A stretch of DNA of 42,703 nucleotides. Source: Oscillibacter sp. Lineage in GTDB: Bacteria > Bacillota > Clostridia > Oscillospirales > Oscillospiraceae. The translations under genes and the position numbers were made by a program. The stretch spans positions 1 through 42,703 of the forward strand of contig JAGBDS010000016.1 of NCBI GenBank assembly GCA_017937405.1. Reading direction: 5' to 3'. The notes beneath the pieces were generated by a model. The model was not told where the DNA came from. It saw nothing but the letters and a program-made list of their open reading frames with translations, and did not search any database. Below, piece by piece: positions 32,401 to 37,502 of this stretch. Each line of letters opens with the position of its first letter. Position 1 is the first letter of the stretch.

Positions 32401-33465
32401 ATGAAAAAGGGCTATTTAGTGCTCCAGGACGGGCAGGTTTTTGAGGGCGTCCGCTTCGGCGCCGACACTGCCGCCGTGGGCGAGCTGGTGTTCACCACCG
32501 GCATGTGCGGCTACATCGAGACCCTGACCGACCCCAGCTACGCGGGACAGATCGTCATGCAGACCTATCCCCTTATCGGCAACTACGGCATCATTCGGGA
32601 GGATTTCGAGGGCGCTTGCTGCGTGAAGGGCTATGTGGTCCGGGAGTGGTGCGAGGTGCCGTCCAACTTCCGCAAGGATTGTGACCTGGACACCTATTTG
32701 AAAGAGCAGGGGGTGCCGGGGCTGTACGGCGTGGACACCCGGCAGCTCACCCGTATCATCCGGGAGCACGGCGTGATGAACGCGACGATTTGTGACGAAG
32801 TGCCCGCCGACCTGACACCGGTGGAGACTTACGCTGTCACCGGCGTGGTGGAGGCTGTCACCTGCAGGGAGCCTGCTGTTTACCCGGCGGAGGGGGAGGA
32901 GAAATTCAAAGTCTCCCTTCTGGACTACGGCGCCAAGCGGAACATCGTCCGGGAACTCCAGAAGCGGGGCTGCACCGTCACGGTCCTGCCTGCCACCACC
33001 TCTGCGGAGGAGATTTTGGAGGGCCACCCCGACGGCGTGATGCTGTCCAACGGCCCCGGCGACCCGGCGGAGAATGTCTACCAGATCGAGCAGATCAAAA
33101 AGCTGTTGGGGAAGGTCCCCATGTTCGGCATCTGCCTGGGTCACCAGCTGACGGCTCTGGCTGTGGGCGGCAAGACCTACAAGCTGAAATACGGCCACCG
33201 GGGCGTCAACCAGCCCGTCCGGGACTTGAGCGGCGTCCGTACCTACATCACCAGCCAGAACCACGGCTATGCCGTGGACTCCGACACGGTGAAGGTGGGT
33301 CAAATCTCCTTTGCTAACGCCAACGACGGCACCTGCGAGGGTATCGATTACCCCGACCTGAAAGCCTTTACGGTGCAGTTCCACCCGGAAGCCTGCACGG
33401 GACCGAAAGATACATCCTTCCTGTTTGACAGATTTGTAGAGTTGATGAAAGGGGGCGAGCTGTAA
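32401..33465 (+). CDS. carA: Carbamoyl-phosphate synthase small subunit, 354 aa
   Basis: Supplies ammonia from glutamine to the large subunit for pyrimidine and arginine synthesis. The N-terminal domain starts KGYLVLQDGQVFEG and has the conserved TGMCGYIETLTDPSY. The class I glutaminase has its nucleophile Cys in FGICLGHQ and the His-Glu pair in VQFHPEA. Length is normal. AGGAGG precedes the ATG at 32401. Its TAA overlaps the carB ATG by one base (33465), so the two subunits are translationally coupled. Confidence 0.98.
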   Translation: MKKGYLVLQDGQVFEGVRFGADTAAVGELVFTTGMCGYIETLTDPSYAGQIVMQTYPLIGNYGIIREDFEGACCVKGYVVREWCEVPSNFRKDCDLDTYLKEQGVPGLYGVDTRQLTRIIREHGVMNATICDEVPADLTPVETYAVTGVVEAVTCREPAVYPAEGEEKFKVSLLDYGAKRNIVRELQKRGCTVTVLPATTSAEEILEGHPDGVMLSNGPGDPAENVYQIEQIKKLLGKVPMFGICLGHQLTALAVGGKTYKLKYGHRGVNQPVRDLSGVRTYITSQNHGYAVDSDTVKVGQISFANANDGTCEGIDYPDLKAFTVQFHPEACTGPKDTSFLFDRFVELMKGGEL

Positions 33466-36400: not shown

Positions 36401-37502
36401 GGAGGTTGTGGGCAAGCTGGGCCAGGACAACCGGGTGTTCCAGCTATTGGAAGATGGAAAAATCGATTACGTCATCCTCACCGGCTCCACCGAGCCCAGC
36501 TATATCAAAGATTTCATCCATCTGAACCACCGCTGCGTCCAGTTGGGCATTCCGTGCCTCACTTCTCTGGACACTGCCAACGCTTTGACGGATATTCTAG
36601 CCTCCCGGTACAACCAGCACAACACGGAGCTCATCGACATCTGCCACCTGCGGACGGAGCGCCAGAAGCTGAAATTCGCCAAGATGGAGACCTGCGGCAA
36701 CGACTATATCTTCCTGGAAAACTGGGACGGGGCCATCACCTGCCCCGAGTCGCTGTGCGTGACCTTCTGCGACCGGCATCACGGCATTGGCGCCGACGGT
36801 ATCGTGCTCATGGAGCGGTCAGAAAAGGCCGACGCGAAGATGCGGATGTTCAACGCCGACGGTAGCGAGGGCATGATGGCAGGCAACGCCCTGCGGTGCA
36901 TGGGCAAGTACCTCTACGACAATGGCATCGTGAAAAAAGAGGAGATGACCATCGAGACCGGCAGGGGCACCAAGACCGTGCAGCTCTACACCATGGGCGG
37001 CAAGGTGACTTCCGCCTGCGTGGATATGGGCTACGCCACCCTAGACACGGCGGCGCTGAAATTTGCCATCCCGGAGCAGACGGTGGTGGACTATCCCGTG
37101 GTCATCGGCGGACGGCCCTTCAACATCACCTGCGTGGATATGGGCAATCCCCACTGCGTCGTGTTCTGTCCCCGGGTGGACGCCGTGGACATTGAGTTCA
37201 TCGGCCCCCGGTTCGAGCACGCGCCCTATTTCCCGGAGCGCATCAACACGGAGTTTATCCGGGTGGTGAACCCCAGCACCATCAAGATGCGGGTCTGGGA
37301 GCGGGGCAGCGGCGAGACCATGGCCTGCGGCTCCGGCGCCTGCGCAGCGGTGGTGGCGGCTGTGGCCAACGGCCTGTGTGAAAAGGGCAAGGACGTGACC
37401 GTCCGGGCCAAGGGCGGCGACCTCATCGTCAACTACACCGACGAGCGGGTGACCCTCACTGGCGACGCGAAGCTGGTCTATACCGGCGAGGCGGAATATT
37501 GA
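33465..37502 (+). CDS. carB: Fused carbamoyl-phosphate synthase large subunit and diaminopimelate epimerase (CarB-DapF), 1345 aa
   Basis: Residues 1 to about 1066 are a complete CarB: first ATP-grasp half starting GSGPIVIGQAAEFDYAG, second half starting GSGPIRIGQGIEFDYSS (about 547), and a C-terminal MGS-like allosteric domain. Without a stop, residues about 1069-1345 form a complete DapF, starting LKFAKMETCGNDYIFLE. Both epimerase cysteines are present, C1145 in GNALRC and C1288 in ACGSGAC. CarB makes carbamoyl phosphate; DapF converts LL- to meso-diaminopimelate for lysine and peptidoglycan. An internal ATG (36684) lacks a strong ribosome site, so a separate DapF is unlikely but not excluded. 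No frameshift signal is visible; a missed stop codon by sequencing error is the main alternative. Confidence 0.93.
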   Translation: MPLDTSIKKVLVIGSGPIVIGQAAEFDYAGAQACRILKDAGVNVVLCNSNPATIMTDQAMADEIYLEPLTTETIKRIILKERPDSILAGLGGQTGLTLAMQLDKEGFLAEQGVRLLGTDAKVISRAEDRELFKEAMAEIGQPVIASDIAETVEDALAVADRIGYPVIVRPAFTLGGAGGGAANNARELHIIAQTGLDASPITQVLIEKAIFGWKEIEFETMRDSVGNVIAVCSMENLDPVGVHTGDSIVVAPTQTLADKEFQMLRKASLDIITHLGIVGGCNVQLALNPDSFEYAVIEVNPRVSRSSALASKATGYPIAKITTKIALGYTLDEIKNDITGKTCACFEPTLDYIVVKMPKWPFDKFADASRKLGTQMKATGEVMSIAPSFEMALMKAVRGAEVGLDTLNRKVDPEDGAPIWERLRRVDDHRIFTVFEALKSGISIEEIFSITKIDRWFLAKLKKMAEFELALEKDGLTAEHYETGKKLGYPDSALLRLSGAEALPCESKTAVYKMVDTCGAEFDAETPYFYSSFDKFCESRTFPRSGKPVIMVLGSGPIRIGQGIEFDYSSVHCVWTLKELGYEVVIVNNNPETVSTDYDTADRLYFEPLYPEDVMHIIEVEKPVGVVVAFGGQTAIKLTKFLDDHGIRIMGTSAESIDMAEDRERFDELLERFHIKRPRGMGITGMQGALDAAHELGYPVLLRPSYVIGGQNMVIAHNDEDVRTYMEVILSGKIENPVLVDQYLMGKELEVDVISDGKDVLIPGVMQHIERTGVHSGDSIAVYPPYSIGDKMLRTIIDCSEKLALSLGTKGLINIQYLIYQNDLYVIEVNPRASRTVPYISKVTGVPMVDLATRVMVGQPLASLGYGTGLYKQPPYVAVKVPVFSFEKITDANAALSPEMKSTGEVLGLGKDMQEALFKGLVSAGYKVEKSEHAGVLISVNRRDQPEIVNIARKLDEMGFKLYATERTAQEISRLGTDVEVVGKLGQDNRVFQLLEDGKIDYVILTGSTEPSYIKDFIHLNHRCVQLGIPCLTSLDTANALTDILASRYNQHNTELIDICHLRTERQKLKFAKMETCGNDYIFLENWDGAITCPESLCVTFCDRHHGIGADGIVLMERSEKADAKMRMFNADGSEGMMAGNALRCMGKYLYDNGIVKKEEMTIETGRGTKTVQLYTMGGKVTSACVDMGYATLDTAALKFAIPEQTVVDYPVVIGGRPFNITCVDMGNPHCVVFCPRVDAVDIEFIGPRFEHAPYFPERINTEFIRVVNPSTIKMRVWERGSGETMACGSGACAAVVAAVANGLCEKGKDVTVRAKGGDLIVNYTDERVTLTGDAKLVYTGEAEY

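What the first reader, a model, noticed from the sequence alone, without database searches (positions are those of the whole stretch)
33465..37502. Carbamoyl-phosphate synthase large subunit fused in frame to diaminopimelate epimerase
One uninterrupted frame encodes a full CarB (about 1066 residues) and a full DapF (about 277 residues). Both DapF cysteines (C1145, C1288) are present with the right spacing (143 residues; 144 in E. coli), and the CarB part has normal length. The two enzymes belong to different pathways (pyrimidine/arginine and lysine/peptidoglycan), so the fusion is not an obvious channelling case. It would place DapF directly behind CarB's allosteric MGS domain and tie the dose of a wall-precursor enzyme to nucleotide synthesis.
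Basis: partly seen in the sequence, partly recalled or inferred. Interest (0 to 1): 0.72.

Follow-up and report, generated by a model that had tools for sequence, protein, structure and literature searches.

The report
CarB fused to a Cys-less DapF domain
A gut bacterium makes the large subunit of carbamoyl-phosphate synthase with a whole cell-wall enzyme joined to its end, but the joined enzyme lacks one of its two catalytic cysteines while the rest is well preserved, so it may have become a regulatory or structural part.

Summary
The fusion is real: one 1345-aa frame (33465-37502), CarB plus DapF, directly after carA. It is no assembly error: 38 of 43 genus genomes (own included) carry it, one in a single contig. 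It is widespread: 27 of 75 family, 43 of 88 order, 19 of 118 class, 5 of 119 phylum genomes sampled.

Only C1288 (C217) is kept. In the family and order samples 49 of 64 fused genomes lack one or both cysteines, yet the pocket is about 95% conserved and dN/dS in the genus is 0.15 (CarB 0.11). Of the 49, 45 have an intact separate DapF or DAP dehydrogenase; 13 of 15 genomes with intact fused copies have no other intact DapF. A second sample was weaker.

Best reading: an old clostridial CarB-DapF protein whose DapF half repeatedly lost epimerase chemistry and was kept as a ligand-binding or structural domain of CPSase. Ligand and effect on CarB are untested, and five genomes with no other DAP source found (G085 above all) caution against calling it dead.

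The parts
32401..33465 (+). carA, carbamoyl-phosphate synthase small subunit (354 aa); its last base is the first base of carB
   Evidence: TIGR01368 441.8 bits, cut-off 307.35; overlap. carA lies within 120 bases upstream in 64 of 74 fused loci; of the other 10, five begin within about 300 bases of the sequence end, three have carA overlapping or further off, two (L041, L062) show none
33465..37502 (+). carB::dapF fusion gene, 1345 aa
33465..36662 (+). CarB part, residues 1-1066 (PF02142 MGS domain at 947-1033)
   Evidence: its residues 545-1065 match E. coli CarB 1bxr at E 5.3e-200
36663..37502 (+). DapF-like part, residues 1067-1345 and stop
   Evidence: TIGR00652; model matches 9mro_A with TMt 0.92, rmsd 1.6
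36879..36881 (+). A1139, in the place of the first catalytic Cys (E. coli C73)
36897..36899 (+).
37326..37328 (+). C1288, second catalytic Cys (E. coli C217), kept
37510..37539 (.). 30-nt GC-rich palindrome 7 nt after the stop, perhaps the end of the transcript; second perfect copy at 37764-37793
   Evidence: role inferred

Best explanation
The gene makes one polypeptide: a CPSase large subunit whose C-terminus carries a whole DapF fold. The fusion is old and spread through Clostridia (shown as distribution). At first the fused DapF was probably the cell's epimerase, as it seems still to be in relatives where it keeps both cysteines and is the only intact DapF (inferred). In the lineage of this genome, and several times elsewhere, Cys73 was replaced, mostly by Ala, while the rest of the substrate pocket and purifying selection stayed (shown; that the changes are losses and not gains is inferred). 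meso-DAP then comes from another DapF or from DAP dehydrogenase (gene content shown in most, not in all). The domain is therefore most likely a non-epimerising part of CPSase: it binds DAP or a similar amino acid next to the MGS regulatory domain and tunes carbamoyl-phosphate output or subunit assembly (inferred). UMP, by way of UDP-MurNAc, and meso-DAP meet in the same wall precursor, so such a link would make sense (pathway knowledge, inferred).
For: Ala at the C73 column in 18 of 18 genus fusions read, and A/G/S/F/L/T in 49 of 66 fused copies of the family and order samples. C73 and C217 are named as the catalytic pair and the C73&217A double mutant is inactive in PMC4227774 (passages). Twelve pocket positions average 0.947 conservation in those 49 copies against 0.675 for all positions. 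dN/dS median 0.147 for the DapF part, 0.113 for CarB 1-935, 0.119 for MGS, 66 pairs of 12 genus genes. Full length without a stop in 60 of 86 genus genomes. In the family/order sample genomes with both cysteines in the fused copy have a separate intact DapF in 2 of 15, those that lost one in 37 of 49 (Fisher 2.5e-5), and 8 of the remaining 12 have DAP dehydrogenase over the cut-off. Second sample: all 7 genomes with a lost Cys have another source. The DapF fold is predicted intact; highest TMt are 9mro (bound inhibitor) 0.92, 3ejx_B (bound inhibitor) and 7vdy_B 0.90. Catalysis-free action of DapF on another enzyme is known: C73&217A DapF still activates RppH (PMC4227774).
Against: No ligand or effect on CarB is shown. 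The passages seen report the double mutant, not loss of C73 alone. G085 (one contig, 97%) has only the Cys-less copy, no dehydrogenase, and a LysA-like gene below the family cut-off; G113, G141, G162 and G181 also have no other source found, and G016 has no second DapF (dehydrogenase not searched). So the Cys-less form may be active or another route exists. The association rests on few independent events: 5 changes on the tree, 4 to 5 independent pairs, sign test cannot reach 0.05. In the second sample 7 of 12 genomes with a separate DapF keep both cysteines in the fused copy (Fisher 0.37). The genus's separate DapF sits with a symporter gene in 8 of 9 loci and might be another racemase. AlphaFold tends to give closed forms, so the match to liganded DapF is weak evidence.
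Confidence: 0.6

Rival explanations
1. The fused DapF is still the working epimerase, with A1139 tolerated or replaced by another residue nearby; the fusion merely coexpresses two housekeeping enzymes.
For: Pocket and C1288 kept; G085 and four others have no other DapF or DAP dehydrogenase found; 9 of 49 copies without Cys73 carry a Cys three residues on, at position 76, though the window's copy has Ala there.
Against: The double Cys mutant of E. coli DapF is inactive (PMC4227774 passages); 43 of 45 separate DapFs read keep both cysteines; in the first sample loss concentrates where another source exists.
Confidence: 0.2
2. Passive leftover: once another DapF arrived, the fused domain lost its function and has not been deleted yet, perhaps because removing it would harm CarB folding.
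For: Several different replacements at C73 (A, G, S, F, L, T); 4 of 49 copies also lose C217 and a few lose N13, N75 or R214.
Against: dN/dS 0.15; 60 full-length genus frames without a stop; pocket more conserved than the rest.
Confidence: 0.15
3. Structural role only: the DapF fold gives CPSase a dimer contact or stabilises it, without any ligand.
For: Confident DapF fold behind MGS (pLDDT 85.4, pTM 0.84); DapF dimerises in other bacteria (recalled).
Against: Ligand-contacting residues are kept beyond what a pure scaffold would seem to need.
Confidence: 0.25
4. Assembly or gene-calling artefact.
For: MAG of 112 contigs, 89% complete.
Against: Same fused frame in 38 of 43 genus genomes and across the class.
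Confidence: 0.01

Closest known systems
CarB, glutamine-dependent carbamoyl-phosphate synthase large subunit (TIGR01369)
   Same: Whole CarB with both ATP-grasp halves and MGS domain; carA directly upstream
   Different: Extra 279-residue DapF fold at the C-terminus; E. coli CarB (1bxr, 1073 aa) has none
DapF, diaminopimelate epimerase (TIGR00652; 9mro, 2otn, 1gqz)
   Same: Fold, length, most pocket residues, second catalytic Cys
   Different: First catalytic Cys is Ala; fused to CarB; 35 of 38 fused genus genomes have a second DapF
E. coli DapF-RppH complex (PMC4227774; 6d13)
   Same: Precedent for DapF acting on another enzyme without its epimerase chemistry
   Different: There a separate, active DapF binds an unrelated hydrolase; no fusion
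C73S DapF mutant structure (2q9h, title seen)
   Same: A DapF without C73 that could be crystallised
   Different: Engineered, not natural

Membership tests
CarB large subunit | Match over curated cut-off of TIGR01369 along the whole model | tested here: met
   1390.9 bits, model 3-1050 of 1052
CarB large subunit | Partner CarA encoded alongside | tested here: met
   32401-33465
CarB large subunit | Carbamoyl-phosphate synthesis, regulation by UMP and ornithine | not testable with these tools
   needs enzyme assay
DapF diaminopimelate epimerase | Match over curated cut-off of TIGR00652 | tested here: met
   263.1 bits, cut-off 114.65
DapF diaminopimelate epimerase | First catalytic Cys (E. coli C73) | tested here: not met
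   Ala at 1139
DapF diaminopimelate epimerase | Second catalytic Cys (E. coli C217) | tested here: met
   C1288
DapF diaminopimelate epimerase | DapF fold | tested here: met
   TMt 0.92 to 9mro_A, predicted model
DapF diaminopimelate epimerase | LL-DAP to meso-DAP activity | not testable with these tools
   needs assay
Bifunctional DapF/glutamate racemase (NF038284) | Match over curated cut-off | tested here: not met
   108.1 bits, cut-off 350

The most novel reading that the evidence does not exclude
A wall-sensing CPSase: a fused epimerase turned into a diaminopimelate sensor by loss of one catalytic base, several times independently in Clostridia, so that pyrimidine and arginine supply follows the state of peptidoglycan precursor synthesis.
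Probability: 0.3. Interest if true: 0.82.

Novelty: new variant of a known kind. Interest (0 to 1): 0.6.

Why it matters
If the reading holds, this is a natural, repeated experiment in how an enzyme becomes a regulatory domain: fused copies with both cysteines and copies with one missing exist side by side in related gut bacteria. It would add an unforeseen input to CPSase, the entry point of pyrimidines and arginine, from the wall and lysine pathway. It also warns that annotation by family score will call these genes both carB and dapF and may wrongly credit genomes with DAP epimerase.

Tried and rejected
Assembly error or missed stop: rejected by the relatives. Internal start for a separate DapF: no ATG, GTG or TTG at the DapF start in any of 14 genus copies compared (13 CTG, one ATC); the next Met (1074) is Leu in two of them. 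Glutamate racemase bifunctional DapF: below cut-off. Whether the fusion arose once was not settled: L111 (unfused, 4-base overlap) falls among fused CarBs with weak support, and L017 (G013) has carB-TGA-SD-dapF in one frame with the Cys kept, on a long branch; both may be pre-fusion or split states.

Is the separate DapF of the genus real? 218 bits (L026), both cysteines; the type is the only DapF of G070 (L028), which has LysA over cut-off and no dehydrogenase. G008 shows the same gene content but its DapF was not read. Against it: a dicarboxylate/amino-acid symporter gene follows in 8 of 9 loci, so its substrate is unproven.

Missing second dapF in G000: the ABC-F gene that precedes that locus in G061 lies at C68:17429-19249, and the length of L273 leaves only 138 bases of flank on one side, which I read as a contig end; supportive, not proof.

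Phylogeny-corrected test of loss against a second DapF: too few events. L174_G218 has an odd CarB part (branch 7.79); the tree was rebuilt without it and L017, with the same counts. G198 (cut by a contig end before C217) was dropped from the Fisher count; with it gave 3.9e-5. G231 (frame of 794 aa) had no copy that the script took as fused; it was left out of the genome table, though its piece L181 is among the 45 separate DapFs. G228 counts as intact by its two cysteines but has Thr at N75; G162 counts as lost because C217 is Ser. G346 has a 644-aa frame only, CarB end and DapF in one frame. Class and phylum counts use frames over 1200 aa; the 23 fused copies read were checked for CarB in the same frame, 23 of 23.

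Literature: nine searches (listings only, one search showed 8 of 457) showed no paper on a CarB-DapF fusion or on a natural Cys-less DapF domain. Only PMC4227774 was opened, passages by search term.

Full report
Observation. The window holds one open frame of 1345 codons at 33465-37502, whose first base is the last base of carA. NCBIfam gives CarB at residues 4-1043 and DapF at 1070-1343, both far over their cut-offs; Pfam agrees, with MGS at 947-1033 and two DAP_epimerase stretches, the better at 1223-1337. The window lies in an unnamed MAG of 112 contigs, 89% complete. Among named loci an uncultured Dysosmobacter sp. has a fused DapF 87% identical (L036), so the genus is probably Dysosmobacter (Oscillospiraceae).

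How common it is. Searching whole genomes with TIGR00652 and counting frames over 1200 aa, the fusion is in 38 of 43 genus genomes, 27 of 75 of the family, 43 of 88 of the order, 19 of 118 of the class and 5 of 119 of the phylum; G000 is counted in each and the samples share a few genomes. The five genus genomes without it are G008, G013, G029, G057 and G070; G013 has carB and dapF as neighbours in one frame, with a stop and 12 bases between.

The cysteine. Alignment to 13 relatives and to solved DapFs puts C1145 on the Cys of RC in CGN..RC and A1139 on the Cys of CGN. PMC4227774 names C73 and C217 as the catalytic cysteines of E. coli DapF and reports the double Ala mutant inactive (passages); which Cys of the motif is C73 is recalled. 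Of the genus fusions, 18 of 18 read have Ala there (L003-L016, L022-L025). In the 66 fused copies of the family and order samples the column is C in 17 and A 28, G 9, F 6, S 4, L 1, T 1 in the other 49; of 45 separate DapFs 44 have C.

What else is kept. In the 49 copies without Cys73 the twelve pocket positions tested average 0.947 conservation against 0.675 over all positions; C217 is kept in 45 of the 49. Within the genus the DapF part has median dN/dS 0.147 against 0.113 for CarB 1-935 and 0.119 for MGS, 66 pairs of 12 genes; three pairs of the separate dapF gave 0.09, 0.11 and 0.12. The residue is thus absent from a domain that is otherwise under selection. AlphaFold2 of residues 545-1345 (39 sequences) gave pLDDT 85.4, pTM 0.84. 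Foldseek matches E. coli CarB and, for the DapF part, 9mro with TMt 0.92.

Gene content. Of 64 genomes with a readable fused copy (65 less G198, cut), 15 have both cysteines; 2 of these (G206, G228) also have a separate DapF with both, and one (G111) a separate DapF without C217. The other 49 have lost at least one cysteine; 37 of them have a separate DapF with both (Fisher 2.5e-5). Of the remaining 12, eight have DAP dehydrogenase over the TIGR01921 cut-off and four (G113, G141, G162, G181) have neither. The dehydrogenase is also present in 7 of the 15 genomes with intact copies (table), so it does not by itself go with loss. A second sample outside the order, 23 genomes, was read afterwards: 16 intact, 7 lost; without a separate DapF 9 of 11 are intact, with one 7 of 12 are intact (Fisher 0.37). 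All 7 lost have a separate DapF or the dehydrogenase. So 'a cysteine is lost only where another source exists' fits 52 of 56 genomes of the two samples, while 'a second DapF goes with loss' holds clearly only in the first. On a CarB tree the state changes at least 5 times and the residue itself 12 times; four or five independent pairs cannot give significance, and the tree counts do not tell loss from gain.

Exceptions that matter. G085, a one-contig genus genome, has the Cys-less fusion as its only DapF, no dehydrogenase, and a LysA-like gene below cut-off, as do most genus genomes tested. G016 also lacks a second DapF, and has no LysA match. G000 lacks one, but the syntenic neighbour sits next to what looks like a contig end. 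These cases keep open that the Cys-less domain retains some activity.

Mechanism. Shown: one reading frame, CarB over its cut-off, DapF fold predicted intact, one catalytic Cys replaced, pocket kept, purifying selection, another DAP source in most genomes. Inferred: loss of epimerase chemistry; retained binding of DAP or a relative; effect on CPSase through the adjoining MGS domain or through assembly. The biological sense offered, that UMP and meso-DAP both feed the UDP-MurNAc peptide, is pathway knowledge, not a result here. A precedent for catalysis-free action of DapF on another enzyme is RppH (PMC4227774).

Novelty. Nine searches of the held library showed no paper on this fusion or on a natural Cys-less DapF domain; the library lacks most subscription papers. 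The sequences are in public genomes. Enzymes that became regulatory domains are a known kind; this pair and its repeated Cys loss appear undescribed in what I could search. After the recount the confidence of the main reading was lowered from 0.62 to 0.60, because the source I saw tests the double mutant only.

Noticed in passing
window 30936-31020 and 31161-31245: The last 85 bases around the end of lepA (elongation factor 4) are repeated perfectly 225 bases on: a partial duplication or an assembly effect.
   Followed up: no
window 37510-37539 and 37764-37793: Two perfect copies of a 30-base GC-rich palindrome after the fusion gene, 254 bases apart.
   Followed up: no
window 39383-39640: T-box leader (RF00230, 100.3 bits) just before leuA and leuC, ordinary.
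   Followed up: no
window 31730-32164: Lrp/AsnC-type regulator (145 aa, below all curated cut-offs) between lepA and carA; could sense an amino acid for the operon.
   Followed up: no
L026, L027, L028, L029, L030, L031, L032, L033: The genus's separate dapF is followed by a dicarboxylate/amino-acid:cation symporter gene in 8 of 9 loci (not in L034), which hints at a racemase-transporter pair.
   Followed up: partly
L072, L088, L131: A fused DapF followed at once by a separate DapF gene with both cysteines; in L131 (G094) the fused copy has Ala, in L072 and L088 it has Cys.
   Followed up: no
L188 (G111): Here the fused copy has both cysteines and the separate DapF has Ser at C217, the reverse of the usual pattern.
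   Followed up: no
L129 and L131 (G094): One genome with two different CarB-DapF fusions, both with Ala at C73.
   Followed up: no
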